A stretch of 43,047 bases of DNA from Rhodoferax sp. Its GTDB lineage: Bacteria; Pseudomonadota; Gammaproteobacteria; Burkholderiales; Burkholderiaceae_C. Position numbers and translations under genes: made by a program. The notes beneath the pieces are model-generated. The model did no database searches, had not been told where the DNA came from, and worked only from the letters and a program-made list of their open reading frames with translations. How positions within the stretch are numbered: the stretch's first letter is position 1; each line of letters starts with the position of its first letter. This document shows positions 1-42,956 of this stretch, piece after piece. The stretch covers positions 1-43,047 of the forward strand of contig JAIPDC010000005.1 of the NCBI GenBank assembly GCA_021737865.1. Reading direction: 5' to 3'.

Positions 1-119
1 CGGGAAACCTGCAGGTCATGGAAGTACCGGATTGCGGGCACGCCCCGGCGCTGAATGTGCCTGCGCAGCTGGATTGCGTTACTTCTTTTGTCGGGAAATG
101 TCATGAAATAGGGCTGTAG
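1..119 (+). CDS. alpha/beta hydrolase, C-terminal fragment (5' end outside window)
   Basis: The frame starting at base 3 is open from the window edge to a TAG at 117-119 and gives 38 residues containing VPDCGHAPALN. A CGHAPAL stretch followed by a short helix is typical of the C-terminal end of alpha/beta-hydrolase-fold enzymes, where this His completes the Ser-Asp-His triad. The substrate cannot be told from the tail. The stop codon lies in the first bases of repeat R1 copy 1 (TGTAGCCC), so the last residues may have been changed by repeat insertion. The family call is inference from a short stretch; another hydrolase-like protein remains possible. Confidence 0.5.
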   Translation, partial: GNLQVMEVPDCGHAPALNVPAQLDCVTSFVGKCHEIGL

Positions 120-160
120 CCCTGGTGGATATTGCGTAGGCTGCTACTCATTACATAGCG
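115..160 (+). repeat. R1 repeat, copy 1 (intergenic, supplies upstream stop)
   Basis: A diverged copy of the ~46-bp R1 element, with TAGCCCTGGTGGATATTGCG near its start and CATAGCG at its end, spaced as in the other five copies. The TAG of its first bases ends the upstream hydrolase fragment. It lies about 60 bp before the toxin-antitoxin operator. Confidence 0.6.
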
Positions 161-11264: not shown

Positions 11265-11305
11265 AAGTTTCAATTGTCACTCAGAGCGGGGTGGGGGGCA
11301 GATCA

Positions 11306-11330
11306 TGTTGAGTTATGTTGTGTTGTGTTG
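11306..11330. repeat. pentanucleotide tandem repeat (TGTTG)
   Basis: Five consecutive 5-bp units: TGTTG, AGTTA, then three TGTTG. It lies 42-66 bp upstream of the hpnD start codon and next to the left arm of R2 copy 1. A short tract like this can change length by slipped-strand mispairing; no effect can be seen from one sequence. Confidence 0.6.
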
Positions 11331-11416
11331 AATCAGGTGGGCCGGGTGTTCTGCTGCGTGTCCCCCGGCCTTCGGCCTCCTCCTTGACCTACGCAGAACA
11401 CCCAGCCCACCTGATT
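11331..11416. repeat. R2 nested-hairpin repeat, copy 1 (hpnC-hpnD gap)
   Basis: Arms 11331-11354 and 11393-11416 are complementary at 23 of 24 positions. The inner end of each arm is the conserved TGTTCTGC/GCAGAACA. The 38-bp core has TGTCCCCC, a small GGCC-TTC-GGCC hairpin, then CTCCTCCTTGACCT. The outer arm halves (AATCAGGTGGGC) differ from copy 2 although each copy pairs with itself. Transcribed between hpnC and hpnD, it could act as an RNA processing site or transcription brake; it has no T-tract. Confidence 0.75.
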
Positions 11417-11444
11417 TGGCTGCATGTTCAGCCACGAAGTACGC

Positions 11445-12323
11445 CTACATCCACAACGCCCGCCACAGCATGATTGGGAAGTCCCACCAGCGCAGGGTGG
11501 GGCGCGTATTCAGCGTGGCGTAGTGCAGGGCGTCGATGCGGTCCAGAATGCGCAACCCGCCTTGCACCACCAGGCGCAGCTCCCACCCGGCGCGACCGGG
11601 AACCTGGTGCACCAATTCTGATCCAGATTGCATGCTAGCCCTCGCCGTTGCTGCGCAGGCAGCTATCAATTGTGTAGCATTTTCAGTTTGACGCAGGGCC
11701 AGAATATCTTCCTGCGAGACGCCAAAGCGCATGCATTCGTTGTATGGCAGGTAGTAGCGGCCCCGGGGAATGTCCACGCTCAGGTCCTGCCAGAAGTTAA
11801 TGAGCTGCAGGGCACTGCAAATGGCGTCGCTGCGCTGCAATGCCAGCGTGTCATTCACGCCGTACAGGTGCAGCAACAAGCGCCCGATCGGGTTGGCGGA
11901 GCGGCGGCAGTAGTCCAGCAGTTCGGCGTGCGTGGCATAGCCTTCTGCAGCGGCGGACTTTTGGGTGTCCTGCACAAAGGCATCGAGCAGGTCGTGCAGA
12001 AGTTGGGGTGGGAGTTGGTGGTTTTGCAGCGCGACTTGCAGCGGGCCGAATACGTTGGGCCAACGGGTGCTGGCGGGCGGTGTGATGGCGTGTCCTGGTG
12101 GGACGGTGTTACACGCAGCGACCAAGTCTTGCCGGTAGGCCTGCAGTTCTTCGATCCGTTGCCCGGAAGTGGCCTCGCCCTCATCGGCAATGTCATCGGC
12201 CGTGCGGGCAAAGTGGTAGATGGCGGAGATGGGCGAACGCAAATGCGCCGGGCACAGGAGGGACGCGACCGGAAAGTTTTCGTAATGGGTGATTGGGGAT
12301 GGGCTTTCCATGGGCGGGTGCAT
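11445..12323 (-). CDS. hpnC: hydroxysqualene synthase
   Basis: A 292-residue squalene/phytoene synthase family protein that converts presqualene diphosphate to hydroxysqualene in hopanoid precursor synthesis. HYENFPVAS at the N-terminus is characteristic of HpnC. The first Asp motif is ARTADDIADE (residues 39-48) and the second is INFWQDLSVDIPRGRYYLP. It is the first gene of the hpnC-hpnD-hpnE set; squalene-hopene cyclase is not in the window. The ATG at 12323 is used, with a second ATG 12 bases on as alternative; neither has a clear ribosome-binding site. Residues about 215-230 (NATQLIAACAATARASM) come from R1 copy 4 read in antisense. Confidence 0.9.
   Translation of the reverse strand: MHPPMESPSPITHYENFPVASLLCPAHLRSPISAIYHFARTADDIADEGEATSGQRIEELQAYRQDLVAACNTVPPGHAITPPASTRWPNVFGPLQVALQNHQLPPQLLHDLLDAFVQDTQKSAAAEGYATHAELLDYCRRSANPIGRLLLHLYGVNDTLALQRSDAICSALQLINFWQDLSVDIPRGRYYLPYNECMRFGVSQEDILALRQTENATQLIAACAATARASMQSGSELVHQVPGRAGWELRLVVQGGLRILDRIDALHYATLNTRPTLRWWDFPIMLWRALWM
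11634..11679 (+). repeat. R1 repeat, copy 4 (inside hpnC, antisense to the gene, in frame)
   Basis: Carries GCTAGCCCTCG, CTGCGCAGGCAGCTATCAAT and GTAGCA in R1 order. hpnC reads its complement as ATQLIAACAATARASM. The copy in the GNAT-like gene is read in the same antisense frame (ASSLIAVDTYSTRASS). Confidence 0.8.
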
Positions 12324-12454
12324 TGGAGGATTTTGCCAGTGTGGCTGGCTGCTGCATCCGCTGTGCGGGTAAGATCATTTGGCACAGCTGCGAGAATTGC
12401 GTTGGATGCCCCCGATCAACAGGTTAGCTGATTTTTCTGAAAGATGAAGGTTGT

Positions 12455-14698
12455 ATGTCGACACCCGCACAAGGCAATGCGCCAAGAATAGATTCAGAAA
12501 TGCTACTCAACAAGATATTGTTGCAGCTTCACGATGGGGCAGACCTGCAGCTTGCCGTTGGACAGGCGTATCCTGACATCATGACCCTTATGGATGCCGA
12601 GCGGGTCACCATCTACCAGAAGGATAAAATTTCTGGCGACATGGTTTCTCGATTCAAGGTGGCTGATGAATTGAAGGAAATCCGGGTCTCATCCTCTACC
12701 ACATCATTGTCTGGCTACTGCGCCCTGACACGGCAAGCTGTCAACGTTGCGGACGTATATGACGCGCCGGCCTTGAGCAAGATTCATCCCGCATTGGTGT
12801 TTCAGGATTCTTTCGACCGGGCTTCCGGTTTTCGTACCCGGGCCATGATGGTGCTGCCCATTTTGTTTCACGATGCACTCTTGGGAGTATTGCAAGTCAT
12901 TAATCGGCGCCGTGGGGGACCGTTTAGTGATGTGGATGTGGCATTAGCCAATAAGCTGGCGACGATCCTGGCTCAGAAGTTACGGTATGAACTACAGGCG
13001 ACATCAGGCCCGTACGCACATCTGGTCCACAACGGTCGATTGAAGCAATCCGATCTGGATGACATCAAGCTGCGCTCCAACAAGACCAGACAAACTGTGT
13101 CTCAGTTGCTGATGCGCGAAATGAGAATTGGCGCGGCGGAAATTGGCGCGTCAATGGAGCGCCACTACCAAATTCCCTATATGCCGTTTGATCCGGCCTT
13201 GGTAATTCCCAAAGAGCTGTTCCAGGGTATCAAGGAGAGTTATTTGCGCGCCTGCGGCTGGCTGCCCGTCGCGGGCGACCGAAAAGAGGTCACGATCTTG
13301 ATCGATGACCCCTCGGACAACGCGAAGTTGCGCGAGATTCAGAGTCTGATCAATGCGCAAAAATACATCTTTAAGCTGGGGTTGCCCGAAGACATGTTGC
13401 GATTTCTGGGGCAGGAAGTGGCTACCCCAGGCGATGGCGATGGTGCCGGCAACGCATCTGCTCCTGTGCGCACCGAAACGGCAATCGGCGAGGCCACCGA
13501 TGAAAGTGATGCTGCGGTAGTGCAACTCGTGAACAGATTGCTGATGCAAGCCTACCTGGACCGCGCATCTGATATTCACATTGAACCCGCTGCTGGCACT
13601 TCGCCCACTGCGGTGCGCTTCAGGGTGGACGGCAGCTGTTTGTGGAAGGAGGATGTCCCGACACATATGCACCGGTCGGTTATTTCTCGGATCAAGATTC
13701 TGGCAAAGCTGGACATTTCCGAGCAACGCAAACCGCAAGACGGCAAGCTGATGGTTCGTTATAAGGGCAACCCGTTGGAGTTTCGCGTTGCAACCATTCC
13801 CACAGTTCATGGTGAGTCGATGGTGCTGCGTCTGCTGACATCCGGTGCCAAGCTCATGAAGATTGACGAAATGAACATCGCACCGCACTACCACAGCATG
13901 TTGCACAAGGTGCTTGGCCAGCCGCACGGTGTGTTCTTGGTCGTGGGACCGACGGGTTCAGGAAAGACCACTTCGTTGCACGCACTGTTAAACCATCTGA
14001 ATACACCCGATCGAAAGATCTGGACGGCAGAAGACCCGGTAGAAATTACCCAGAAAGGGCTACAGCAAGTGCAGGTGCACCCCAAGATCGGTTTTACGTT
14101 TGCCGCCGCCATGCGGTCCTTCTTGCGCTGTGACCCGGACATCATCATGGTGGGGGAAATGCGCGACCAGGAAACCGCAACGATTGGCATTGAAGCCTCC
14201 CTTACCGGGCATTTGGTGTTCTCTACGCTCCACTCCAACTCCGCTCCCGAGACATTGACGCGGCTGATGGATCTGGGGGTGGAAAAATCCAGTTTTGCAG
14301 ACGCGTTGCTGGGAGTGATGTCACAGCGCCTCATGCGAAAGCTGTGCAGCAAATGCAAGCAACCCGTGCCACTCACGCCTGAACTCCAAGGCGATCTCAA
14401 GGCACTGTATGGCGAGCGCTTCGAAGACGACTGTGGCGCTTATCTGGGAGCTGCTGGCTCGCTGTTTCGCCATGGCAAATGCAACGCCTGCCAGAATACC
14501 GGCTTTCATGGCCGCGTACCAATCCATGAATTCCTGGTGGCATCCCCCGATCTGAAGCGCCTCATTTCACAGGGCGCACGGTTGGAGCAGCTTGTTGACG
14601 CAGCCTGCCAGGCCGGAATGCGCACATTGATTCAGGACCAGGTCATCAAAGCTTTCCTGGGATATGTGGATGTGGACGAAGCTCTTGGAGCAAGATAG
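12455..14698 (+). CDS. GAF-domain GspE/PilB-type secretion/assembly ATPase
   Basis: A 747-residue protein with an N-terminal GAF domain (about residues 20-180, ending LLGVLQVINRR...) and a C-terminal type II secretion/type IV pilus ATPase. Visible ATPase motifs are Walker A GPTGSGKTTS (about residue 497), the Asp box TAEDPVE, Walker B DPDIIMVGEMRD (about 560), the His box region GHLVFSTLHSN, and a tetracysteine zinc site split between CSKCKQ (about 630) and CNACQN (about 675). Such ATPases drive pilus extension or pseudopilus assembly from the cytoplasm; the GAF domain suggests control by a small ligand. No other pilus or secretion gene is adjacent, so the partner machine is unknown. The ATG at 12455 has a purine-rich GATGAAGG upstream. 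Confidence 0.85.
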   Translation: MSTPAQGNAPRIDSEMLLNKILLQLHDGADLQLAVGQAYPDIMTLMDAERVTIYQKDKISGDMVSRFKVADELKEIRVSSSTTSLSGYCALTRQAVNVADVYDAPALSKIHPALVFQDSFDRASGFRTRAMMVLPILFHDALLGVLQVINRRRGGPFSDVDVALANKLATILAQKLRYELQATSGPYAHLVHNGRLKQSDLDDIKLRSNKTRQTVSQLLMREMRIGAAEIGASMERHYQIPYMPFDPALVIPKELFQGIKESYLRACGWLPVAGDRKEVTILIDDPSDNAKLREIQSLINAQKYIFKLGLPEDMLRFLGQEVATPGDGDGAGNASAPVRTETAIGEATDESDAAVVQLVNRLLMQAYLDRASDIHIEPAAGTSPTAVRFRVDGSCLWKEDVPTHMHRSVISRIKILAKLDISEQRKPQDGKLMVRYKGNPLEFRVATIPTVHGESMVLRLLTSGAKLMKIDEMNIAPHYHSMLHKVLGQPHGVFLVVGPTGSGKTTSLHALLNHLNTPDRKIWTAEDPVEITQKGLQQVQVHPKIGFTFAAAMRSFLRCDPDIIMVGEMRDQETATIGIEASLTGHLVFSTLHSNSAPETLTRLMDLGVEKSSFADALLGVMSQRLMRKLCSKCKQPVPLTPELQGDLKALYGERFEDDCGAYLGAAGSLFRHGKCNACQNTGFHGRVPIHEFLVASPDLKRLISQGARLEQLVDAACQAGMRTLIQDQVIKAFLGYVDVDEALGAR

Positions 14699-14713
14699 CG
14701 GACCCCGCCCCGA

Positions 14714-16912
14714 CTATTTCCGGCTCATCACCACCACGCTGCCGGTGTCACCTGCTTCAAACCTTCTCGCATGGTAGTTGACCAGCGGATCATCAGGGTA
14801 TTGGGTTGCCATCAACTTGAAGGCGTCAGCCGCCTGGGGTGATTCTGCATCCATCAGCGCATAGGCAGAACGGTACTGTTCCATGCGCTCACTCGCGTCT
14901 TCTCCCTCGGTCAGTGGTTCATATACCGTAATCGGGACGGTTTTCCCCTTTAACACCAGGCGGCCCCCCGGACGACCCCGGAAGTTTTTCATTTGCTGTA
15001 CTGTGGACCCGCTGATACAAATACGGGTTCCCAGTTGACCGTTGATGCTCTCAAGCCGGGCCGCCGTATTGATGGCGTCGCCCAGTGCCCGGTAGTCGAA
15101 CATCACCTTTCCGCCAAAATTCCCGACCATGACATCGCCCGTATTAACACCGATTCGGGTCCGCCCAAAAGGAATGCCCCGCGTCTGCTGGCTTTGGCTA
15201 AAAGCATGGGCAAATTCATCCATCGCCATTGCACACGCCACGGCGCGCGCTGCATGGTCTGGTTGAACCACAGGGGCAGAAAACATCACGGCGACAGCAT
15301 CGCCCACGATCCTGTCGAGCGTACCGTCATGCGCAAAGGCTATTTCAATCATGCTGTTCAGGTATTCGTTCAGCAGTGACGACAATATCGAGGGTTCGTA
15401 TTTTTCCATCATCGACGTGAACCCGGCCAGGTCGGTCATAACAAACGAGCACTCCCGGTATTCACCGCCCAGCACCAGTGTTTCCGGGTTCTCCTGCAGG
15501 TATTTCACCCGATTGGGCGAGATGTAACGGGAAAATGCGGTCCTGATCCAGCGCTGTTCCTTTTCCGTACGCAAATAGCCTGGCACAAAGAGCGACAGGA
15601 ATAGCGCAGTAAGACCCAAGGCCGGGTACAACGGGTCAAACAGGAGATACTGGCTTACAAATAGCCACATCGAGAGACTCGCTAGCCCAACCACACCCGC
15701 ACCAAGCAACACCACAGACCATATCGGGCGAAAGTAGGCAAGCATCAACGCCATCGCCAGGCCATAGCTCAACATCAGACCCGTCACAAACGCGTTTTCC
15801 CACCCTGGCCGCAGCAGGTACTCATTGGTCAATAGCTGCTCGATCAGCTGCACATGGCCTTCCACCCCGGGGACCAACTGACCCAGCGGTGTGCGCACCA
15901 CATCCCCCAACCCGACGGACGTGGCGCCGATCACAACAATGTGGTCTTTGATGCGTTTGGGTTCAACCTTGCCATCGAGGATGTCAATGGCGGAAACATA
16001 GCGGTCATTTGATTTTGGGCGCATGTGTAACCACACCCGTGCTTCCGGTGACGTTGGCAGGTAAGCGGCGGTCCCCACCTGGATGCCTTCGATTCCAGGC
16101 GGTTGCAACCAGCTTGCTTTTTGTGGCGAAAGAAACTTCGCCAGTAAATCGCTGGACCCCAGGTACACCCGCAACCCTTCCAGTGCCAGGCTGGGATAGA
16201 GGGAGTGCTCGTCACCCAGCGCACTCACCAGTGGCATCGATCGCAGAATCCCGTCGTGATCGGGCGCCATGGTCACAACACCTGCGCCCATCGCCGAACC
16301 AACCAACGCAGGGTAATAGCCCGTCCCGTCGGACCAGCTTCTGACCCAGGAAGCAATATCTCCGCCCTCTACAGCAATATGCGTCTTGCGCGGGGGCAAT
16401 GGCTTATGTATATCGGAGTTGTATGCCTGAATTCCTGTTACTACCCTGCTCTGCGAAAAAATCGCGGCTAACATTTCGTCGTGTGATGGGAACGTCTGCA
16501 GCAAGGCGTCGAGCTGGGCGTTTTCGGGCCAGAACTGTTTGACTACATTGGGTGACGTGCGATCCGCTTCGGCCAAAATCAGGTCCAGTACAACGACCCG
16601 TGCACCAAACGCTGTCAGTTGGTCAATGATCTGCGCCAGCACGGTGCGAGGCCAAGGCCATTGACCTAATGTTTCCAGGCTCTTATCGTCAATAGCCACC
16701 ACCCTGACGGGTACGTCTTCGACATACGCGCCAGGATGCACCTTATGCAGCCAGTCAAACGCAAAATCCCTAATGCGCATTCGCTCCAGGGGGTCTTGGT
16801 ATTGCACCGCTAGAAAAAAGACCACAATTGCCGACGGCAACAGTGCCTGCATCAACAACTGATAAACCCGTTTGCGAGTCCAAGGGGGGCCAAACAACCA
16901 CGCTTTCGCCAT
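14714..16912 (-). CDS. CHASE2-domain adenylate/guanylate cyclase
   Basis: A 732-residue membrane protein with one N-terminal membrane segment (about residues 20-40), a periplasmic CHASE2 sensor domain, three further membrane segments (about 370-450), and a C-terminal class III cyclase domain. Cyclase motifs are FVMTDLAGFTSM with a metal-binding Asp, VGDAVAVMF with the second, and YRALGDAINTAARLE with the ribose/transition-state Asn and Arg. GTLDRIVGD has Arg where adenylate cyclases usually have Lys, so ATP or GTP preference is open. It should turn a periplasmic signal into cAMP or cGMP. It is the last gene of the TpsB-TpsA-FecR cassette, 56 bp after the LysM-FecR gene. Confidence 0.87.
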   Translation of the reverse strand: MAKAWLFGPPWTRKRVYQLLMQALLPSAIVVFFLAVQYQDPLERMRIRDFAFDWLHKVHPGAYVEDVPVRVVAIDDKSLETLGQWPWPRTVLAQIIDQLTAFGARVVVLDLILAEADRTSPNVVKQFWPENAQLDALLQTFPSHDEMLAAIFSQSRVVTGIQAYNSDIHKPLPPRKTHIAVEGGDIASWVRSWSDGTGYYPALVGSAMGAGVVTMAPDHDGILRSMPLVSALGDEHSLYPSLALEGLRVYLGSSDLLAKFLSPQKASWLQPPGIEGIQVGTAAYLPTSPEARVWLHMRPKSNDRYVSAIDILDGKVEPKRIKDHIVVIGATSVGLGDVVRTPLGQLVPGVEGHVQLIEQLLTNEYLLRPGWENAFVTGLMLSYGLAMALMLAYFRPIWSVVLLGAGVVGLASLSMWLFVSQYLLFDPLYPALGLTALFLSLFVPGYLRTEKEQRWIRTAFSRYISPNRVKYLQENPETLVLGGEYRECSFVMTDLAGFTSMMEKYEPSILSSLLNEYLNSMIEIAFAHDGTLDRIVGDAVAVMFSAPVVQPDHAARAVACAMAMDEFAHAFSQSQQTRGIPFGRTRIGVNTGDVMVGNFGGKVMFDYRALGDAINTAARLESINGQLGTRICISGSTVQQMKNFRGRPGGRLVLKGKTVPITVYEPLTEGEDASERMEQYRSAYALMDAESPQAADAFKLMATQYPDDPLVNYHARRFEAGDTGSVVVMSRK

Positions 16913-16968
16913 GGTTCAAAACCGACCGTCAAACATAGCCAGATAGCGTCGCTTGCACATTGCTCGTG

Positions 16969-18321
16969 TCACCGGGATACAGCCGCACCGCGCGTGAACG
17001 TAAACGCATCGCTGAAAGGGCCAACGTCACCGGTGTTGGTGATGCTGGCGACCCGCCAATAGTATTGGCCCTCCGGCACGGCAATCAATACTGCGCGGGT
17101 GCTGCCAGAGATCTTGGGCACCACCGCCACCAGATTCTTGAATTCGGCATCTTCGGACAGTTGAAAAAGGTAGTCCTGGGCTTGCGGCGCGGTAGACCAC
17201 CGAAACACCACTTTTTCATCGACTGAACGGTATTGGTCTTGCGGAAGGCTGAGATCAGGTGGCTCTGGACGGGTTTTTACGGCAAAAGCCTTGATTCCAT
17301 TGGAACCCTCCAGCCCTGACGCATCGATGCCGCGCACCCGCAATACGTAGTCGCCATCGGGCAGTTCATCCCACTGTGTTTTGCTGTTTTCAGAAACTTC
17401 ATCCACGATGATCGCGTCATTGCCCTGGACCACCGCAAGCAGTTGCACGCGGTACCGCATAGCGCCTGCGAGCCCTGTCCATTCAAATCGGGCTGGCAAT
17501 TTTTTGACCAGAGTTGAAGACGCACCCATGATCGGCGCACTTAACAAGCGAGTGGGCTGCCCCAGCGCTTTTCCCGGCTCAGCGAGGATGCCGAAGCCTG
17601 CTCCAATCACGGCCTGACTGCCTTGGGACTCACCGGCTACCAACCCCTCCACAACCTCGGTACGCGTGGCACCACTGCTCTCGTCAACCTGTATGCGAAA
17701 ACCCGTACCGCGCACGGCAAGGTTGAGTGCGGGTGTGTTGATTTCATACCGCGCAACCGGCCCCTTTTGCGGCGATACCTGCGAGTCGGTTCCCCCCTGA
17801 TGAACCTGAACCTTGGTGTCTGCCATGCCCGTTTTGCCGTAGTTGACCAGGCTCGAGAGGGTGATTTTGCTTTTCTCCGTAACCAGCATCCGGGAGTCAT
17901 CGGCGAAGCGAACGGTCAATGTGCTGCGTGCGCTGGTCTGGATGGTGTCGCCCATCTTCAACACATCACCCGATACCACCTTGGCAACGGGCTGCCCTGA
18001 TTTGTCGAGTCGCTGCACTTCGCCGTGCACCAGGACAGCGGCTGCAAATGGATCGCCTTGTTTGAGGTCGCCTACCGGGATGTTGATCTGCTTGCCCGGC
18101 TGCAACAGCTTGGGGTCCGGTACGGTATTGTTTTGCTGCAATTTTTTCCATTCGTCCGGGTTCTTTTGATACGACTTGGAAATGTCGATCAGTCGATCGC
18201 CCGGACGGACCTTGTAGCCCCAGACCTGATCGACTTTTTGCGCATAACCGGGCGCGGCGATCAACAGACACGCCAATAGGAACCCGTTTGTGGCACGCAT
18301 TACCATGCTGCTCGCGCTCAT
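16969..18321 (-). CDS. LysM and FecR domain protein, exported
   Basis: A 450-residue protein with a signal peptide (from the Met at residue 8, ending PGYA-Q), a LysM domain (YKVRPGDRLIDIS to QINIP, about residues 36-82) that should bind peptidoglycan, and a FecR domain (about 100-230, with TPALNLAVRGTGF). Two fibronectin-III-like segments follow (FEWTGLAGAMRYRVQL; FRWSTAPQAQDYLFQLSED). FecR domains lie in the periplasm and sense or relay surface signals. Its ATG overlaps the tpsA stop by 4 bp (ATGA), so translation is coupled to the secreted protein. It is probably the link between the two-partner-secretion pair and the CHASE2 cyclase; that role is inference. Confidence 0.85.
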   Translation of the reverse strand: MSASSMVMRATNGFLLACLLIAAPGYAQKVDQVWGYKVRPGDRLIDISKSYQKNPDEWKKLQQNNTVPDPKLLQPGKQINIPVGDLKQGDPFAAAVLVHGEVQRLDKSGQPVAKVVSGDVLKMGDTIQTSARSTLTVRFADDSRMLVTEKSKITLSSLVNYGKTGMADTKVQVHQGGTDSQVSPQKGPVARYEINTPALNLAVRGTGFRIQVDESSGATRTEVVEGLVAGESQGSQAVIGAGFGILAEPGKALGQPTRLLSAPIMGASSTLVKKLPARFEWTGLAGAMRYRVQLLAVVQGNDAIIVDEVSENSKTQWDELPDGDYVLRVRGIDASGLEGSNGIKAFAVKTRPEPPDLSLPQDQYRSVDEKVVFRWSTAPQAQDYLFQLSEDAEFKNLVAVVPKISGSTRAVLIAVPEGQYYWRVASITNTGDVGPFSDAFTFTRGAAVSR

Positions 18322-21300: not shown

Positions 21301-22181
21301 CCCACCGAGTTCGCCTGAACAATCCCCTTGTTGTTCACGACGCTGTTCAACAGCGCATCTTTGGCGTGTGCGGTCATGAGCACTTCGCCCCCATCTGCCT
21401 GGATGAACCCGCCGTTACTGGCCAGCGCATTCGCCGCACTTTTGTCGACTGTCACATGGATCAAACCATTGATTGGCACATCCACCGTCGCTGCACCGCC
21501 CGCAGCCAGCGCTATCGAACCCAGATTGGCAGTAATCGCCCCTTCATTGCCAACGCGCGTGCCCAGAAGCGCCACGGAACCACCGGGCTCAGCGTAAATG
21601 CTACCGAGATTGGTAACCTCGCCACCACCGGTTCCGCTGAACCGATAGCGCCCGGCAGTGAAGTCCGCGTCCGTGAGATCCAGTGCAGAGGCCAACAAAC
21701 CACCCACATTGACGGACGCACCCTTGCCAAACAGTATGCCGTTTGGGTTCACCAGAAACACCTTGCCGGTAGCCGACAGGTTGCCAAAAATCTGCGATGG
21801 ATCCGATCCCAGCACCCGGTTGATCACGACCGAGTTGCTGCCGGGTTGCACAAACCGCACCGACTCTGCGGCGCCGATCCCGAAACTCTGCCAATTCAAG
21901 ATTGCGCTTTGGCTCGACTGGGTGATGAGAAGACTGCCCGGGCCACTGCTGTTGATGTTGGCGCTACCGGACGAAACCACTCCCCCAGACGGCAGTGCAT
22001 AGGTCGCGGATGCAAAGCCCATCAACAAGCCCACGCTCAACGCGCGCAACGCAAAACCTGCGCATCCAAGGTGGCCTTCCCCCAACGTCGACGATTTCTT
22101 GCCTTTGGATGTGCCAAGTTCCGAAATGGCCACAACGCACCCCAAGGTGTCATTCCAGACCGAGCGGTATATGTGGTTCAT
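18318..22181 (-). CDS. two-partner-secretion exoprotein TpsA (filamentous haemagglutinin-like)
   Basis: A 1287-residue secreted protein. It begins with an extended signal peptide region (MNHIYRSVWNDTLGC) and a hydrophobic segment cleaved near ATYA-LPSG (residue 62). The TPS domain follows, with the NPNGI motif at residues 145-149 and a second conserved stretch at VGGLLASALDL. The middle is beta-helix-like sequence, then MBG/YDG repeats (MYGAANPAL; TKTYDGSPY; SKEFDGTRN) from about residue 780. A Pro/Ser/Gly-rich stretch (about 1080-1200) leads to a cadherin-like end (LPPWLNFDRGRIHL). It should cross the outer membrane through the TpsB encoded 31 bp upstream and act as an adhesin or matrix protein. 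There are no toxin motifs and no CDI-type VENN motif. Confidence 0.88.
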   Translation of the reverse strand: MNHIYRSVWNDTLGCVVAISELGTSKGKKSSTLGEGHLGCAGFALRALSVGLLMGFASATYALPSGGVVSSGSANINSSGPGSLLITQSSQSAILNWQSFGIGAAESVRFVQPGSNSVVINRVLGSDPSQIFGNLSATGKVFLVNPNGILFGKGASVNVGGLLASALDLTDADFTAGRYRFSGTGGGEVTNLGSIYAEPGGSVALLGTRVGNEGAITANLGSIALAAGGAATVDVPINGLIHVTVDKSAANALASNGGFIQADGGEVLMTAHAKDALLNSVVNNKGIVQANSVGYRNGRIVLDGGDSGVVNMSGTLRATGTTPSTAGGTIIASGDKVLLADHAQLDATGTSGGGGIYVGGGWQGNDPDIRQASGVFVAKSATLDASSTVNGNGGTVVTWSDVHNPQSATQVYGSLIARGGSEGGDGGRIETSGHVLDVSGLRADASASRGKGGQWLLDPDDLTVSAAATNIVPAACPPGSPPACTYFLSTPATSNVLNTDIQTQLNGGTNVVLQTGAAPGGNGDITISANIAKTAGANASLTLFAHGDIVMNSAAKISSTTGTLDINFFSANNITIGAGSQIVSNGGDVALSGANFINNAGAGALNVAGGGRWVVYSNDPSTNVFGSLNSDNQAIWGQNPGSLPLPAVPAGNRFVFTTLGAVTATTVSDFKTYGQSMSVAGDITYSGLPLTSAATYGNVYQNLVIGDVLSTLPTAGSAGEGPAASVGSYSISAGGGVVANPAAYSLGYVNSGTLTVGKALLTVTANDASRMYGAANPALSATVSGFINGETSATAAGFGGSANVTTAATPTTGVGSVAITPAVGTLTATYYDFTLQNGNLTITKAPLTVTAKNDTKTYDGSPYIGGNGVEYRGFVNAESASVLRGALVYGGTSQSAVNAGQFGITASGLTSENYALTYVPSVLTVKPKGVTVSGLIADSKEFDGTRNAVILNWGTAVTGVGSESLVLNHGIATFSNPIVGSGKTVTADGYSLANGTQGGLASNYVLTSTNAQTLANIVVGERAQTVADVQSSLNTSNSSFSSTPRSAAPGAGIGESTVPLVSLMDRDNGLDAGVITVNGRRMDGDTRDRSPSPLGTMQSSVTGPAARSRIVSQATMSMPNPGDSSTALAGGSGSQTPTPPGTSRFSTSGLSSMPAPGARVVGTAPRVSQDVFVRGASRAVEVGTTKGGAVILATVSASANLTRLGVTVVAGDGFDVAIPIAFFGPAAATQGAPQVQATTASGGVLPPWLNFDRGRIHLTADNVPLAGLPLTVKLASGPAKTVEVTFK

Positions 22182-22212
22182 GGTGGACGTTTCGCTTATC
22201 TGCTGGGTAAGG

Positions 22213-23901
22213 CTAGAAAGCCTTCAAAATCTGTAGCCAGAAACGGCTGGATGCGTCGGGAGCCGAAGTCGCAACGGCATCGCCCAGTTTGAACGCCCAG
22301 TACGCTTTAATGAACACGTTGCCGGGGCCGATCCAGTTCAGCCCCAGTCCGGCACCGCGGAGTTCCCGGCTATTTGCCGAAGTGGCATCCCAGGGAAACC
22401 GATTGATGCTCACACTGCCCATATCGACAAAGCCGATCAGTTGCAATTGCCCGGGCAGCCGATCAATCAAACCACTGATGTTGGTTCTCGTCTCCAGCGT
22501 CAGGATAGCTCCCACATCACCGCTGGCCTCACCGGCGGGATAGGCACGCACACCCGTGCCGCCACCCAGGCTGAACTTTTCAGACGCATCCAGGTTTTTC
22601 GAAGCCCACTGACCATTGAGGCTTACGTACAAGTCGGTGCCACTCATCAACGTTTGCTGGCGTGTCAGACCATAGGACACTTTGTCGTAGGTGCCGTTGC
22701 TTTGGGCGCTTCCGCTGTCATTGGCCAAAAACACGTCATTTTGCAAATCGATGCGTCCACGCGTCCAGCTCAGTGTGAAGGTGGTCAGTCCCGTTCCTGA
22801 GCCATCACGCAGGTCACCGTTCAGACTCAGGGTGTTCAGGAGGGCATTTTTGTCAGCGCTGACTCCTGGCAAACTGACCCCCGGTCGGTCGGAGAAATCC
22901 TTGCTGTCAAATGACCACTGGGCACTCAGGTTGCGACTGCGAGAGCGAACGAACGGGTAATTGACAAAAAGGCCCGCCACCCGGGCAGTGCCACTGGACT
23001 GTGAGCTTCCAAACTCCTCCCCCAGCATGTAACGCATGGTGGTATAGGCCGCTCCCAGCCTGAACATGCCAGCCTGCAGTTGGTAGGAGGCCCGGCCAAA
23101 CACCAACCCCTCACCGGAGGAGAGCACGCGCAAAGACGCAGCATCACCCAAACCGGCAGGTTCATTGATATTGATGCTGGCGCCGATGCGGTTGGTGCCG
23201 GTATAACGATTGCCCTGGTTGTCCGCCTCTATACTGCCGCTGGCAGCCTGCCCGGGCGCGATGTCGACCGTCAGATCGGTGGCGCCACGTTCACTTGCAG
23301 GAGCCAATGTCGACTTGACAAGGATGCCCGGCAAATCGGACAACAGCAACAGGCGTCGCTCGAGTGCGTGGGATGTAACCTTGTCAGCACTCTTGAGCCC
23401 GCCAAGCAGTTGGTTGGCAACACCGTCTGCCAGACCTGATTGGTTGCGCAGCTTGATCTGGCCAAACTGGCCCTCTAGCACCGTGAATCGCACAACGCCA
23501 TCGGTAATGTCTTGCGAAGGCAAATAGGCCTGTGCTACAAAGTACCCTAGGCTGCGGTAATGGGCGGTCACGCGGGCCGCTATTGCGCGCAGTTCCGCCA
23601 CGCTGTATTGGCTCTGCGCCACGAATCCGCTCACACGAATCAGTTCGGATTCTTCGATTGCGGTGGCTCCTGCAAATTGCAGCCCTTTGATAAGGACTAT
23701 GGCGCCGCTTTCCATCACCGCAGTTTGGGGCAGTTCCGTGCTCACCTGTAGGTCCGGCTTGTCCGATTGAACGGTCGGTGCTGATTGAATTTGCTGGAGC
23801 TGACTTCCCGCGGACGGCTGCTGCTGAGCCAACGTCGCCGGTGGGATCGTAGCTAGGAAAAAACTGACCCAACGCACAGCGGCGCGATGTAGCAGATGCA
23901 T
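22213..23901 (-). CDS. two-partner-secretion transporter TpsB (ShlB/FhaC family)
   Basis: A 562-residue outer-membrane protein of the Omp85 superfamily that secretes the TpsA encoded next to it. A signal peptide ends at ATLA-QQQ (residue about 24). It is followed by a Gln-rich linker, POTRA domains (FVAQSQYSVAELRAIAARV; VRFTVLEGQFGQI) and a 16-strand barrel containing FSLGGGTGVRAYPAGEASGD, the conserved VRGY-like L6 tip. The protein ends in Phe, as outer-membrane barrels do. The ATG at 23901 is chosen because the signal peptide begins there; a longer upstream reading would run into the GAF gene. It is first in translationally close order with tpsA, fecR and the cyclase. Confidence 0.9.
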   Translation of the reverse strand: MHLLHRAAVRWVSFFLATIPPATLAQQQPSAGSQLQQIQSAPTVQSDKPDLQVSTELPQTAVMESGAIVLIKGLQFAGATAIEESELIRVSGFVAQSQYSVAELRAIAARVTAHYRSLGYFVAQAYLPSQDITDGVVRFTVLEGQFGQIKLRNQSGLADGVANQLLGGLKSADKVTSHALERRLLLLSDLPGILVKSTLAPASERGATDLTVDIAPGQAASGSIEADNQGNRYTGTNRIGASININEPAGLGDAASLRVLSSGEGLVFGRASYQLQAGMFRLGAAYTTMRYMLGEEFGSSQSSGTARVAGLFVNYPFVRSRSRNLSAQWSFDSKDFSDRPGVSLPGVSADKNALLNTLSLNGDLRDGSGTGLTTFTLSWTRGRIDLQNDVFLANDSGSAQSNGTYDKVSYGLTRQQTLMSGTDLYVSLNGQWASKNLDASEKFSLGGGTGVRAYPAGEASGDVGAILTLETRTNISGLIDRLPGQLQLIGFVDMGSVSINRFPWDATSANSRELRGAGLGLNWIGPGNVFIKAYWAFKLGDAVATSAPDASSRFWLQILKAF

Positions 23902-23969
23902 GGGAATTCGTGTGACGGAGGTGGGTGATAAGGCGATGTCTCGAAACTGTACGGTTAGAACGGCACAAG

Positions 23970-24749
23970 TCAGGTACTTACGGCTTCCCCTGTAGCTGTC
24001 AGTTGAACCCATGCGCCAAAACCCCGAAACGGGATGACATGGGCGTGGAAGGGTAAAGACATCAGTTTTCTTGGTTCGTCCCACTCGCATTGTTGGATGG
24101 TGACCACATTCAACTCCCTGGGAAGGAGACTTTGCGAAAAATTGACGCCCTCCCAAGCAATGTCCAACATCTTCATCGCCTCGTTGACGACTTTGACATT
24201 TCCTTGCCAGTCTACAACCGCCGACGGATTTGTCGCGCTACGGCATAGGCCGGTCAGAGAGTCTAAAGTTGACTCCGTCAACAAGGCAATGTCAAACATC
24301 GGGGAGATTGTGTCCGCCAATTCGGCCGCATTGGCAAGGTCTCTTTCCCTGAATTGGCCACGTGTTGAATGGTGAAAAGCAATCAGTCCTATGACCGTGT
24401 CGCGGCTCATCATCGGCACGACCATTGCCGACGCGATTTCAGTTGAGCCCATGGACGTCCAGCGCTCGTCCAACTCGGTATTGGACGCCAATCCCCCCTG
24501 ACGGTGCCGTAACGCCCAACCAGCCAGGCCTTCTGCAAGCACCGTCTGCAATTTGTGTTCAGACACCTGCGCGAACGTTTCTTTGGTCGCCAACACTTTG
24601 TGCACTACGCGGTCGCCGGACAGAAGGATGAGGGAACCATTGTCTGCGCCTACGCAGGCCAAAATGGAAGGCAATACCTTGACAGCCATGGTTTGCGCAT
24701 CACTGTGCTGCTTGATCAGATTCAGCAACTCGCTAAGTGTCGGATTCAT
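23970..24749 (-). CDS. GAF-domain protein
   Basis: A 259-residue cytoplasmic protein. Residues about 15-165 resemble a GAF domain (ADNGSLILLSG; VLAEGLAGWALRHRQGG; SAMVVPMMSRDTVIGLIAFHH), followed by a PAS-like C-terminal part (NPSAVVDWQGNVKVVNEAM). No output domain is visible, so it may act through partners. The ATG at 24749 has GAGGG upstream and begins at the predicted first helix; the reading frame continues further upstream without a credible start. It lies 68 bp ahead of tpsB on the same strand and may be the first gene of the cassette. It is divergent from the HD-like gene, with 174 bp between start codons. Confidence 0.7.
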   Translation of the reverse strand: MNPTLSELLNLIKQHSDAQTMAVKVLPSILACVGADNGSLILLSGDRVVHKVLATKETFAQVSEHKLQTVLAEGLAGWALRHRQGGLASNTELDERWTSMGSTEIASAMVVPMMSRDTVIGLIAFHHSTRGQFRERDLANAAELADTISPMFDIALLTESTLDSLTGLCRSATNPSAVVDWQGNVKVVNEAMKMLDIAWEGVNFSQSLLPRELNVVTIQQCEWDEPRKLMSLPFHAHVIPFRGFGAWVQLTATGEAVST

Positions 24750-24923
24750 GAATGCCCTCAGGTTCGTGTGTTCATCCTTTATTCTATAGACTGGAAATTG
24801 GTGCAGGTTGCAGGTTGAGTCTTGCCCGGCCGGGTGAGTCGAGTAGTTTTGAATAGCAAAGTACAAGACCCAACAGCGTAACCATGCCATACTTTGCCTC
24901 ATTCGGCACAAAAAATTATCCGT

Positions 24924-26288
24924 ATGACTGTTTCAACCATCAATAGGCTGATTGCCCTGTTTGATGGGGCATTCCGTGCGCTGGCTCCGGGGCTCAGCAT
25001 GTCCGACGCGGAACACATGGCCACGCTGGTGCACCAGTCCATGAGCCCCAGCACTCGGTCCTATCACACCAGTGACCATGTGTTTGACATGTGCGAGGGT
25101 GCGAATGCCATCCAGACGTTGGCTGCATTGTTTCACGATCTGGTTTATTTTCAACTTGATGGTGGGTTCCCCGCTGGTGTGGCACATTTGCTGAGTGATG
25201 CCGTGTTGGAGCGACACGGTGTCATCACGATTGCACCTTTTTCGTCGGATGACGAGGTCATGTGCTTGTGCACAGAGATCTTTGGCTTCGGGGTTGGACA
25301 GTCTCTCTCGGTCTACGCCGGTTTGAATGAATTTGCGAGTGCGCTGGTGGCGGGCCATCAGCTGCACAAACATCTGCGCCGCAGCGATCTCATTGGCGTG
25401 CTGGCATGTATTGAGGCCACCATTCCGTTTCGCAATGCAGTTTACAAGGGTGAGTCAGCGCCAGATTTGCTGGCCCAGAGGGTCCGCGCAGTGACGCAGA
25501 CGCATGTCCTTGAACTGGTTGGCGTCGAGTTGGATGTGCACGTTGCGTCGACAATGCATGATGCCGTGGAGTTCGGAAATCGGGATGTGCGCGGTTTCGC
25601 GCTGGCCAACCAGGCCCTGTTTCTGTCAAACACATGGATGCTGATTGAGGAGTCCAACGCGCCGCTAAAGGTTGTAGGCGTATATGCGTTGTCCGATTAC
25701 CGAGGCGCTCTCATGCGCATGGCCGGCTTTTTGGCGAACCTGGACTTGGCCAGCATCTTTCAGAGCTATGCAGGCTATCCGAACGACGCAACGCTGGACG
25801 AGTGGGCCGATGCTGCAGGCAGAAACTTGCGCTTTGCCTGTGATTATCTGGACTGTAAAACTGCGTCAGTAGCCATCATTGAAGCACTGGCTAGGCTTAC
25901 CGGCAATGATTCGCCTGTCTCGATGTTCCTCGGTGACATCTCGAGTTTGCATGGAAAACCGGAGCGAGTGGAGGATTACCTGCCCGAAACTTCGCCTGGC
26001 CCGGTCCTGGATGAGGCGCTATTGGAGGTGTTCGTCAAAGGGCGGGCGCGCGAATCGCGCAACGACCTGACTTCTTCGCCACTGACCGCCTTTGTCTACC
26101 GGCGAATCGGTCAGTATGGGATGCGTGTGGCGATTGTCCAGGCGCGACGTATGTTTGACGGTCTGATTTCACCATTCGAATTTCTGAACACACTGGACCG
26201 TGACATGGTGCGCGCCGTAGTGCGTGCGTGCGCCATGATTGCCTTGTCCCGGCGTGAGGCGTTGCTGGCTCTGGAAAAAACGTTGTAG
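24924..26288 (+). CDS. HD-like metal-dependent hydrolase domain protein
   Basis: A 454-residue protein of uncertain function. The N-terminal part has a His/Asp pattern like HD-superfamily phosphohydrolases: RSYHTSDHV (His48, Asp51, His52) and LFHDLVYF (His71, Asp72). These could bind metal; the fuller five-ligand HD motif was not confirmed. The rest is mostly helical with no motif I recognise. Start: ATG at 24924, giving a normal N-terminal helix (STINRLIALFDGAF); an upstream TTG is unlikely. It is divergent from the GAF gene and convergent with the GNAT-like gene. If it hydrolyses a nucleotide it could oppose the cyclase of the cassette, but nothing in the sequence proves this. Confidence 0.55.
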   Translation: MTVSTINRLIALFDGAFRALAPGLSMSDAEHMATLVHQSMSPSTRSYHTSDHVFDMCEGANAIQTLAALFHDLVYFQLDGGFPAGVAHLLSDAVLERHGVITIAPFSSDDEVMCLCTEIFGFGVGQSLSVYAGLNEFASALVAGHQLHKHLRRSDLIGVLACIEATIPFRNAVYKGESAPDLLAQRVRAVTQTHVLELVGVELDVHVASTMHDAVEFGNRDVRGFALANQALFLSNTWMLIEESNAPLKVVGVYALSDYRGALMRMAGFLANLDLASIFQSYAGYPNDATLDEWADAAGRNLRFACDYLDCKTASVAIIEALARLTGNDSPVSMFLGDISSLHGKPERVEDYLPETSPGPVLDEALLEVFVKGRARESRNDLTSSPLTAFVYRRIGQYGMRVAIVQARRMFDGLISPFEFLNTLDRDMVRAVVRACAMIALSRREALLALEKTL

Positions 26289-26431
26289 TACTTTGATTTT
26301 TTGTTGCATCGCTTGGCAAGCCTTTGGATAGTTCAACCTTGCAAATATGTATTGCGATACCGTCGCAAAACGCCTCATCACGTTGATGTCGTACCCAATG
26401 ACTCTTTCGAGTTCGTTCCCAACCTTAATTT

Positions 26432-27814
26432 TCAGAGATCGTGCCTGAACGGGCTGCGTTGCTCCAGATCGTCCAGGTAGCTGTCGATCCCTTGCCCCTC
26501 GCGCTCCAGAAACCGTGCCACGGCATCGGCGAACGATGGATGTGCCAGCCAATGCGCGCTGGTGGTGCGAACAGGCAGCAGGGCGCGGGCCATCTTGTGC
26601 TCACCCTGGGCGCCGCCCTCAAAGCGATGGTAGCCATGTTCTATGCACCACTGCAGTGGCTGGTAGTAGCAGGCTTCAAAGTGCAGGCAGTCCACCCGCT
26701 CTAGCGCACCCCAGTAGCGGCCATAGGCTACTTTTACGATTTGGCTGCGGAGGCCGGGCGCCAGTGTGTTCTGCTCCGTGTCCCCCGCCCGCTGCGCGGG
26801 CTCCTCCGTGACCTGCGCAGAACACACTGCCGCCCGGTCTCCTTGGAAATTTTGGCTGCTAGCCCTCGTGGAATATGTGTCGACAGCTATCAAACTGCTA
26901 GCAATCGGCTGGCCATTGCGTTCGGCAGTGAATAGCAGCCAGTGTTCTGGCATGGTGTCGGCCATGCGCTGGAAGAAGTCGCGGTTCAGGTACGGCGCGT
27001 TGCCGTGTTCCAGGTAGGTGCGCTCGTAGCAGCGGTAGAAAAAATCCCAATCCTTTGGCGCAATGTCATGGCCCTGGGCCCAGCCGAAGCTGACACCAGC
27101 TTCGGCCACTTTGCGCCGCTCCTGCCGAATTTTTTTGCGCTTCTCCTGCGACAGGGACATCAGGAAGTCATCGAAGTCACGAAAGGGGAGCGTGTGGGCA
27201 GGAGTTTCGCCGCCGGGGCGCCCCAAGGCGAAATGCGCCCCCTCGGGGGGCAGCGAACCACGCGTAGCGGGGAGCGTGGGGGCTACATTCGTCCAGTGGA
27301 ACTGCACCGTATGGCGCAGCATCAGACCGGCTTGCGCGCAGGCTTGGGCGTCGGCATCGTCCACAAATAGCAGGTGCAGTGATGACATGCCGCTTTGTTC
27401 ACACCAGCGCAGCAGTGTCTGCAACAAGGCCGCGCGTGCATCGGAGGTGCGGGCCATCAACCGCGCGCCGGGCACAGGCGTGAAAGGGACAGCTGCAACA
27501 GCCTTCGGGTAGTAAGCCAGCCCGTGCTGGGCGTAAGCGTTGGCCCAGGCCCAGTCAAACACGTATTCGCCGTAGGAATGGCTCTTTTCATAGACGGCGC
27601 AGGCCGCGACCAGTTCGCCCCTTGTACTGAGCGTGATGAAGCGGGGCGTCCATCCGGTCGCGGTTGTGGCACTGCCGCTGGCGTTCAGTGCCGCCAGGTA
27701 GGCGTGGCGCAGGAAGGGACTGGGGTTGGGCTGGGTTAGCAGCAGGGCGTCCCAGGCGACGGCATCCACTTCCAGCGGTGAGTTTGCCAGCCGGATGACA
27801 TAATCCTCAGACAA
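26432..27814 (-). CDS. GNAT/FemAB-like acyltransferase family protein carrying three repeat-derived insertions
   Basis: A 460-residue protein resembling the PF04339-type GNAT/FemAB-like family of proteobacteria (PSPFLRHAYLAALNASGSA; FDDFLMSLSQEKRKKIRQERRKV; HFEACYYQPLQWCIEHGYHRFEGGAQGEHKMARAL in pieces). Members are thought to transfer an aminoacyl or acyl group, perhaps in envelope synthesis; the substrate is unknown. Three segments look foreign: about residues 178-201 (R3), 304-319 (R1 copy 5) and 325-356 (R2 copy 2). Without them the length would be near 380, which I recall as normal for the family. The reading frame stays open through all three. The start appears to be TTG at 27814; no better start was found. 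It is divergent from nadE. Confidence 0.75.
   Translation of the reverse strand: MSEDYVIRLANSPLEVDAVAWDALLLTQPNPSPFLRHAYLAALNASGSATTATGWTPRFITLSTRGELVAACAVYEKSHSYGEYVFDWAWANAYAQHGLAYYPKAVAAVPFTPVPGARLMARTSDARAALLQTLLRWCEQSGMSSLHLLFVDDADAQACAQAGLMLRHTVQFHWTNVAPTLPATRGSLPPEGAHFALGRPGGETPAHTLPFRDFDDFLMSLSQEKRKKIRQERRKVAEAGVSFGWAQGHDIAPKDWDFFYRCYERTYLEHGNAPYLNRDFFQRMADTMPEHWLLFTAERNGQPIASSLIAVDTYSTRASSQNFQGDRAAVCSAQVTEEPAQRAGDTEQNTLAPGLRSQIVKVAYGRYWGALERVDCLHFEACYYQPLQWCIEHGYHRFEGGAQGEHKMARALLPVRTTSAHWLAHPSFADAVARFLEREGQGIDSYLDDLEQRSPFRHDL
26749..26842. repeat. R2 nested-hairpin repeat, copy 2 (inside the GNAT-like gene)
   Basis: Arms 26749-26774 and 26817-26842 are complementary at 24 of 26 positions (one mismatch would be a G-U pair in RNA). 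Conserved parts shared with copy 1 are TGTTCTGC/GCAGAACA, GTGTCCCCC and CTCCT...TGACCT. The outer arm half (GGAGGCCGGGCG) and the inner hairpin (GCCCGC-TGC-GCGGGC) differ from copy 1 but remain self-complementary. It is translated within the gene, about residues 325-356. Confidence 0.8.
26858..26904 (+). repeat. R1 repeat, copy 5 (inside the GNAT-like gene, antisense, in frame)
   Basis: GCTAGCCCTCGTGGAATATG at its start and TGCTAGCAA at its end, with CAGCTATCAA between. It lies 15 bp from R2 copy 2. The gene reads the complement as ASSLIAVDTYSTRASS. Confidence 0.8.
27213..27284. repeat. R3 repeat (inside the GNAT-like gene)
   Basis: GC-rich segment with GCGCCCCAAGGCG, CCCCCTCGGGGGGCAGCGAA, and a CCACGC...GCGTGG stem ending in GGGGGC. 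I recall near-identical segments scattered through Comamonadaceae genomes; only one copy is in this window. It is translated in frame on the minus strand (TRGSLPPEGAHFALG). Confidence 0.6.
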
Positions 27815-27876: not shown

Positions 27877-29953
<2,077 letters not shown>

Positions 29954-34824: not shown

Positions 34825-34870
34825 GCGCCGATTTATAGAACTTTTATTGACGAATCTATTGTCTGCCAAG

Positions 34871-34892
34871 CCCTGCTGTTACCGCAGCAGGG
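34871..34892 (+). other. hairpin in the ilvB-ilvH gap
   Basis: CCCTGCTG (34871-34878) pairs with CAGCAGGG (34885-34892) across a 6-base loop. There is no T-tract, so it is more likely an mRNA stability or processing structure than a terminator. Confidence 0.45.
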
Positions 34893-34922
34893 GGAGGGCA
34901 ACGAAAAGAGGAATCTGTTTAT

Positions 34923-42879: not shown

Positions 42880-42956
<77 letters not shown>

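What the first reader, a model, noticed from the sequence alone, without database searches (positions are those of the whole stretch)
11331..26842. R2: nested-hairpin element whose stems differ between copies but stay self-complementary
Copy 1 (11331-11416) and copy 2 (26749-26842) share a core (TGTTCTGC, GTGTCCCCC, CTCCT, TGACCT, GCAGAACA). The outer arms beyond that core are unrelated between copies (AATCAGGTGGGC against GGAGGCCGGGCG), yet pair at 23/24 and 24/26 positions within each copy. The inner hairpin also changes from GGCC/GGCC to GCCCGC/GCGGGC. This is covariation of two stems, unlike simple copying of one sequence. It implies selection for the fold, arm-to-arm conversion, or an insertion process that copies flanking DNA into inverted arms.
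Basis: seen in the sequence. Interest (0 to 1): 0.8.

Follow-up and report, generated by a model that had tools for sequence, protein, structure and literature searches.

The report
Dispersed hairpin element with frozen loop
Rhodoferax-type bacteria carry scattered copies of a roughly 90-letter hairpin whose stems are free to change as long as they still pair, while its central loop hardly changes, which points to a fold of one DNA or RNA strand that something in the cell recognises.

Summary
A covariance model finds 31 copies in this genome and copies in 32 of 37 genus genomes. The outer 25-bp stem and the inner hairpin covary (87.7% of cells paired, 32-46% with slid partners). Two unpaired strands (reader strand GTGTCCCCC and TCCTCCTT[G/T]ACCT) are nearly frozen: unchanged in 24 of 30 model-found copies of this genome.

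New result: stem mismatches are strand-biased. A.C exceeds G.T 517:103 in 302 copies (42:20 in this genome's 30), so on the opposite strand most are G.U wobbles. Pairing seems kept in one single strand, AGGU(C/A)AAGGAGGA-[hairpin]-GGGGGACAC, whichever way neighbouring genes run. At 31 orthologous sites loops differ 1.5%, arms 16%.

At the FemAB site, empty relatives lack both arms, so arms are not copied flanks. Copies also occur inverted at orthologous sites, as doublets of one geometry, and in frame inside genes.

Best reading: a REP/BRE-class mobile palindrome kept by selection on a one-strand fold bound by an unknown factor. Template switching may help homogenise arms but does not explain strand bias or frozen loops. 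Identity with the 2011 betaproteobacterial BRE was not testable.

The parts
11331..11354 (.). copy 1, left outer arm (stem, sequence free)
   Evidence: inverted repeat I4, 23/24 complementary
11358..11366 (-). copy 1, conserved loop strand (GTGTCCCCC on +; GGGGGACAC on the folded strand)
11367..11377 (.). copy 1, inner hairpin GGCC-TTC-GGCC
11378..11390 (-). copy 1, conserved loop strand (TCCTCCTTGACCT on +; AGGTCAAGGAGGA on the folded strand)
11393..11416 (.). copy 1, right outer arm
11265..11444 (-). gap between the two SQS_PSY (hpnC-like, hpnD-like) genes, 180 nt from the stop to the in-frame ATG here (171 nt to the listed TTG start) and 12 nt in the close relative G031, which lacks the element; the inserted DNA is larger than the palindrome
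26749..26774 (.). copy 2, left outer arm
   Evidence: inverted repeat I2, 24/26
26778..26786 (-). copy 2, conserved loop strand
26787..26801 (.). copy 2, inner hairpin GCCCGC-TGC-GCGGGC
26802..26814 (-). copy 2, conserved loop strand (one change, TCCTCCGTGACCT)
26817..26842 (.). copy 2, right outer arm
26432..27814 (-). FemAB_like gene (PF04339) that carries copy 2 in frame; 4 of 30 orthologous loci examined have the element, 26 do not

Best explanation
R2 is a dispersed, non-autonomous palindromic element of the REP/BRE class. It folds into an outer helix of about 25 bp, an asymmetric purine-rich internal loop (AGGU[C/A]AAGGAGGA on one side, GGGGGACAC on the other), and a short inner hairpin. 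Shown: the loop is nearly frozen, both stems covary, stem mismatches are mostly G.U wobbles on that strand, elements with both arms are present at some sites and absent in relatives, and they occur in both orientations. Inferred: a trans-acting factor, not identified, recognises the folded single strand (as ssDNA in a REP-like mobility or maintenance process, or as RNA) by its loop and needs the stems only as helices. Arm sequences therefore drift freely while compensatory change, possibly helped by template switching, keeps them paired.
For: Covariation: 87.7% of cells paired against 32-46% slid, score 0.674 against at most 0.138 (47 copies chosen by exact core). Loops: in 30 copies of this genome found by the model, 24 have both loops unchanged (G or T version), 5 have one change, 1 has an altered left loop. 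Strand-specific wobble: A.C 95, G.T 15 in 47 of 52 nonredundant copies; 372:86 in 218 of 234; 517:103 in 302 of 326. It holds in single copies where the folded strand is antisense to both neighbours (50:12), sense (49:17), between convergent genes (54:7), and in doublets (236:32). In situ at 31 orthologous sites: 34 double Watson-Crick changes against 5.3 expected, single A.C 58, G.T 8, loop differences 10 of 682 against 16.4% per site in arms; by context. Mobility: empty orthologous sites. Opposite orientation at 9 of 33 sites. Doublets: 62 of 63 neighbouring pairs within 260 nt share one geometry (37 distinct site clusters).
Against: No factor was found. PF01797, the HUH family that serves REPs, has no R2 core in the flanks of up to 1.5 kb at the 30 loci held, and G031, with 34 copies, has no PF01797 match. 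The wobble bias is weaker in this genome's 30 copies (A.C 42, G.T 20) and is reversed at the two outermost stem positions. Selection in place on many copies, whatever the transcription direction, is odd for a purely selfish element. Most loci were fetched by the core itself, so copies with a lost core would be missed; the FemAB and hpnC/hpnD surveys, found by protein, are the only sites free of this. ssDNA and RNA are not separated by these data.
Confidence: 0.6

Rival explanations
1. Template switching between the arms during replication (quasipalindrome correction) keeps them complementary and inverts the spacer, without selection for the fold.
For: Arm homogenisation and spacer inversion are published effects (abstract of PMC8604942; abstract of PMC8794818 on maintained hairpins). 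Copies in opposite orientation stand at 9 of 33 orthologous sites, and 34 in-situ double changes are seen against 5.3 expected.
Against: It is strand-symmetric and predicts A.C = G.T; 517:103 was seen. It does not freeze the loop (1.5% against 16.4%).
Confidence: 0.12
2. A cis-acting RNA element in host transcripts (3' end stabiliser, attenuator or processing site), selected as mRNA structure.
For: G.U wobbles on one strand. Site clusters: 31 in convergent gaps against 7 in divergent gaps, and within genes 30 with the folded strand sense against 6.5 antisense. Doublets put a sense hairpin at the 3' side of either transcript (geometry).
Against: Between co-directional genes there is no orientation preference (30 against 28 clusters), and wobble bias and loop conservation persist where the strand is antisense (4 sites). 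Within genes, the favoured strand and frame may reflect a tolerated peptide.
Confidence: 0.22
3. Strand-specific mutation at extruded hairpins plus gene conversion among copies, without selection for the fold.
For: One loop base (TTGACC or TTTACC) differs between genomes: the G version is rare where the model finds many copies, for example 0 exact G matches and 23 model matches in G026, as concerted evolution would give. This genome has both.
Against: The bias is similar in all transcription contexts; conversion of a 22-nt loop without the adjacent arms is implausible; it needs two unexplained processes.
Confidence: 0.06
4. An insertion process that copies flanking DNA into inverted arms.
For: One empty FemAB site (L169) carries AAGGAGAC, like the end of an arm.
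Against: 26 of 30 FemAB loci are empty without an arm of about 25 nt; the extra DNA is 90-96 nt, measured against the 173-nt empty segment of L169, and holds both arms. Arm groups recur at unlinked sites.
Confidence: 0.02

Closest known systems
BRE, Beta-proteobacterial repeat element (PMC3110155; section 14 read in full, passages elsewhere)
   Same: About 90 bp, betaproteobacterial including Rhodoferax, Polaromonas and other Comamonadaceae, chromosomal, mostly intergenic but some within coding sequences, scattered, function unknown.
   Different: Some BRE loci are tandem arrays varying in number; close R2 pairs are inverted in 62 of 63 cases. Section 14 reports no stem covariation or conserved loop. 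The BRE sequence was not in the parts I read, and supplements could not be read, so identity is untested.
REP / REPIN / BIME (TnpA-REP or RAYT systems; PMC3733652 abstract, section 14 and one passage; PMC8266576 abstract)
   Same: Dispersed palindromes, single-strand fold processed by a transposase in E. coli, inverted dimers of like or unlike partners with spacers of 20-100 bp in most, many at 3' ends, some intragenic.
   Different: R2 is two to four times longer, its conserved part is an internal loop and not a terminal GTAG/CGTC tag, and no PF01797 gene was found linked to it at the loci held.
RPE, Rickettsia palindromic elements (recalled; search listing only)
   Same: Palindromes of about 100 nt found in frame inside unrelated protein genes.
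   Different: Other host lineage; no sequence comparison was made.

Membership tests
BRE | length about 75-91 bp, repeated in betaproteobacteria | tested here: met
   model of 95 positions, arms included; copies in 32 of 37 genus genomes; also single genomes of two other families of the order
BRE | sequence similarity to the Bordetella BRE | not testable with these tools
   sequences are said to be in a figure and a supplement; no named Bordetella genome was at hand
BRE | tandem arrays at some loci, with no or few bases between repeats | tested here: not met
   62 of 63 close pairs are inverted, with spacers of 19-111 nt; tandem arrays were not sought as such
REP/REPIN | short palindrome (20-40 bp) with GTAG or CGTC tag at one end | tested here: not met
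   91-95 nt, conserved internal loop, variable ends
REP/REPIN | inverted dimers | tested here: met
   62 of 63 neighbouring pairs within 260 nt
REP/REPIN | RAYT gene flanked by the repeat | tested here: not met
   no core in the flanks of up to 1.5 kb at the 30 PF01797 loci held, of 51 places listed; a RAYT outside PF01797 was not sought
RPE-like intragenic palindromes | in-frame insertion into protein genes | tested here: met
   FemAB gene; 18 of 30 intragenic site/strand/phase classes use one frame
MITE of a DDE transposon | target-site duplication | tested here: inconclusive
   no clear duplication by eye in the empty/occupied alignments, flanks too diverged
Rfam RNA families | match at gathering score | tested here: not met
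   none at the element in the window; in 5 loci only matches below gathering score

The most novel reading that the evidence does not exclude
A chromosomal system in which dozens of dispersed hairpins, in genes and between them and in either transcriptional orientation, are each held in place by selection for a strand-specific single-strand structure with an almost invariant purine loop, read by an unidentified ssDNA- or RNA-binding factor. That would be a mobile element family turned into a genome-wide structural signal.
Probability: 0.3. Interest if true: 0.75.

Novelty: new variant of a known kind. Interest (0 to 1): 0.6.

Why it matters
It gives a large natural experiment on palindromic repeats: hundreds of copies with free stems and a nearly frozen loop, with empty, occupied and inverted states at orthologous sites. 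The A.C against G.T asymmetry is a simple test that separates selection on a single-strand fold from strand-symmetric template switching, and could be applied to REP, BRE, RPE and other repeats whose function is unknown. It also names a precise sequence (the purine loop) with which to fish for the missing binding factor.

Tried and rejected
One search found nothing because my smallest gap was too long; one search corrected it. RAYT link: PF01797 occurs in 34 of 37 genus genomes, including the five without an R2 match, and no core lies in the flanks at the 30 loci held. Viral contigs: 0 stretches for the G version of the pattern only. Plasmids: no match with one query copy. Rfam: nothing at gathering score. 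Orientation relative to replication: a hand tally of the listed single copies in G001 and G007 against sampled GC skew showed no consistent bias (copy lists partial). Printed core sequence: only an unrelated human promoter paper holds two of the six words. BRE identity: on 116 genomes of one other unnamed family (f8) the G-version pattern hit 1 (L304, not examined further) and the model hit 1 (L406, convincing arms; strict filters, 36 candidates scored per genome in the rows shown). I cannot say whether f8 holds Bordetella.

Limits of the counts. The 47 copies were chosen by exact core, so their invariant loop columns are by construction; relax this. Wobble counts left out copies out of register (5 of 52 and 16 of 234) and copies out of register or with repeated arms (24 of 326); many of the 302 are orthologous to one another. 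In one search, 7 ortholog pairs with arm identity under 0.5 were left out; one search keeps one pair per site, the most diverged above a similarity threshold. G009's 114 copies equal the scoring cap. Gene calls come from a home-made codon model. Of the nine inverted sites one has arm identity of only 0.38.

Full report
WHAT IS THERE. Both copies named in the finding are real. Their common pattern has 17 exact matches in the genome that holds the window, and a covariance model built from 47 copies finds 31 (E<=0.01, 150 of 1146 candidates scored, the weakest at 38.8 bits). Two contig lengths equal those of Comamonadaceae bacterium OS-4 (G001) and Rhodoferax bucti (G034), so the genus is Rhodoferax or close to it. 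A scan of genome contigs stopped at its limit with 116 stretches, 80 listed; the titles name Burkholderiales or beta proteobacteria, one only 'bacterium', and among named genera Rhodoferax, Curvibacter, Hydrogenophaga, Ramlibacter, Polaromonas, Variovorax, Comamonas, Rhizobacter and Roseateles. In order-wide samples the G version of the pattern matched the window's own genome and one further place without an evident hairpin, out of 300 genomes, and the T version 4 of 399 (own genome, two other genera of the family, one genome of family f21 with convincing arms). One copy with convincing arms lies in family f8 (1 of 116 genomes). None was found in viral contigs (G version only) or plasmids (one query copy).

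ANATOMY. The 47 aligned copies were chosen by their exact core, so their loop columns are invariant by construction. Among 30 copies of this genome found by the model, 24 have both loops unchanged (either version), 5 have one change, and one (L364) has an altered left loop. Among 326 copies found with a relaxed core, 282 have GTGTCCCCC and 236 plus 38 the two right versions. Of 1460 stem cells 87.7% form standard pairs, against 32-46% when the partner is slid by 1-3 columns; cells with changes on both sides are 417 against 88-117 slid; the covariation score is 0.674 against at most 0.138; pairs with a double change are 29 of 32 against 23-26 slid. Among 160 of 166 copies the own right arm fits the left arm with mean score 19.8, against 7.9 for arms of other copies and 6.6 for shuffles. 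Folding of the two window copies gives z-scores of -7.5 to -10.5 as RNA and -6.8 to -8.3 as DNA.

STRAND-SPECIFIC PAIRING. A process that treats both strands alike should leave as many A.C as G.T mismatches in the stems. On the other strand the excess cells are G.U wobbles. The bias appears in single copies where that strand is antisense to both neighbouring genes (50:12), sense (49:17), between convergent genes (54:7), and in doublets (236:32); it is 288:88 in one junction type and 229:15 in the other; at the two outermost positions it is reversed (26:50). In this genome's 30 model-found copies it is weaker, 42:20. So a single-stranded form of AGGU(C/A)AAGGAGGA-[hairpin]-GGGGGACAC is probably what pairing serves, and host-gene mRNA is unlikely to be its only source. 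Mutation bias has not been excluded by a control.

CHANGE IN PLACE. Orthologous copies were paired by their flanks. At 31 sites with homologous arms (at least 65% of stem columns alike; mean flank identity 84.9%), arms differ at 16.4% of positions and the 22 loop positions at 10 of 682; 34 pairs changed on both sides to another Watson-Crick pair against 5.3 expected for independent change; single-side differences are A.C 58, G.T 8. A broader set of 35 sites gave the same picture, with the inner hairpin of different length at 5. Split by context, loop differences are 0-2.3% in each of seven contexts of 2 to 13 sites. Caution: most loci were fetched by the core. Two surveys made by protein are free of this. 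At the FemAB-like gene 4 of 30 loci carry an element, with at most 1 loop change, and 26 carry none; no half-decayed copy was seen. At the hpnC-hpnD gap, 5 of 30 loci carry one (G000, G022, G033, G034, G007) by a relaxed pattern and eye, the five confirmed by the model.

EMPTY SITES, INVERSIONS, DOUBLETS. The FemAB segment is 90-96 nt longer than the 173-nt empty segment of L169, and the extra DNA contains both arms. L169 itself holds AAGGAGAC at the junction, like an arm tip, which could be a scar or chance. Two other sites show inserts of 111-120 nt, a little longer than the palindrome, and at copy 1 the gap from stop to ATG is 180 nt here and 12 nt in G031. So arms belong to the element and are not copied flanks. 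At 9 of 33 orthologous single-copy sites, copies stand in opposite orientation, with best arm identities of 0.38-0.87. Neighbouring copies within 260 nt form one geometry in 62 of 63 cases, from 37 distinct site clusters, with variable spacers of 19-111 nt.

GENES. With home-made gene calls, site clusters (158 in all, about 25 unplaced) lie in convergent gaps 31 against divergent 7, between co-directional genes 30 sense and 28 antisense, and inside genes 30 sense and 6.5 antisense. Stop codons do not explain the last bias, since both strands are mostly open. Of 30 intragenic site/strand/phase classes 18 read one frame; the 14 of these that were printed read AQVKEEPAxRAGDTEQ or close to it, as does the FemAB-like protein of the window. 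A tolerated hydrophilic peptide is a likely reason.

HOW IT WORKS. Most likely the folded single strand is recognised through its loop by a factor not yet known, in a REP-like process of mobility or upkeep. The stems matter as helices only, and template switching may assist in keeping them paired and in inverting the unit; the abstract of PMC8604942 describes both effects and that of PMC8794818 the upkeep of stems. ssDNA and RNA cannot be told apart here. PF01797 transposases are not linked to the element at the 30 loci held.

WHAT IS KNOWN. BRE (PMC3110155, section 14 read) is the nearest published repeat: about 90 bp, betaproteobacterial, 4 copies in Rhodoferax ferrireducens and 29 in a Polaromonas, some inside genes. 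I did not find its sequence in the parts read and could not read supplements. The searches made for prior descriptions were made; their listings (titles and abstract starts) showed no description of covarying stems or a frozen loop for such an element, which says nothing about papers outside that library or unread. PMC3733652 (abstract, one section, one passage) notes untagged REP-like families, Bordetella's among them, and inverted dimers, often of unlike partners, as a common REP trait.

Noticed in passing
window 108-160, 2266-2318, 11627-11679, 26851-26903, 28622-28674: A second dispersed repeat (about 53 nt, TAGCCCTCGTGGAATATGCGCAGGCAGCTATCAAT-like); similar sequence is seen within coding genes of several relatives, next to the R2 insertion in the FemAB-like gene and in hpnC of some.
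   Followed up: partly
window about 27191-27286 (minus strand): A further in-frame insert in the same FemAB-like gene (residues about 177-208, containing GCTGCCCCCCGAGGGGGC), whose translation matches many places in genus genomes, including G004, which has no R2 match.
   Followed up: partly
   Followed up: partly
L272-L301 (genus genomes): A Y1_Tnp (PF01797) gene, often single and about 240 aa, in 34 of 37 genomes, without R2 nearby at the 30 loci held; its own repeat partner is unknown.
   Followed up: partly
window 34849-34916 and 42880-42953: ilvH RNA and a tRNA at Rfam gathering score.
   Followed up: no
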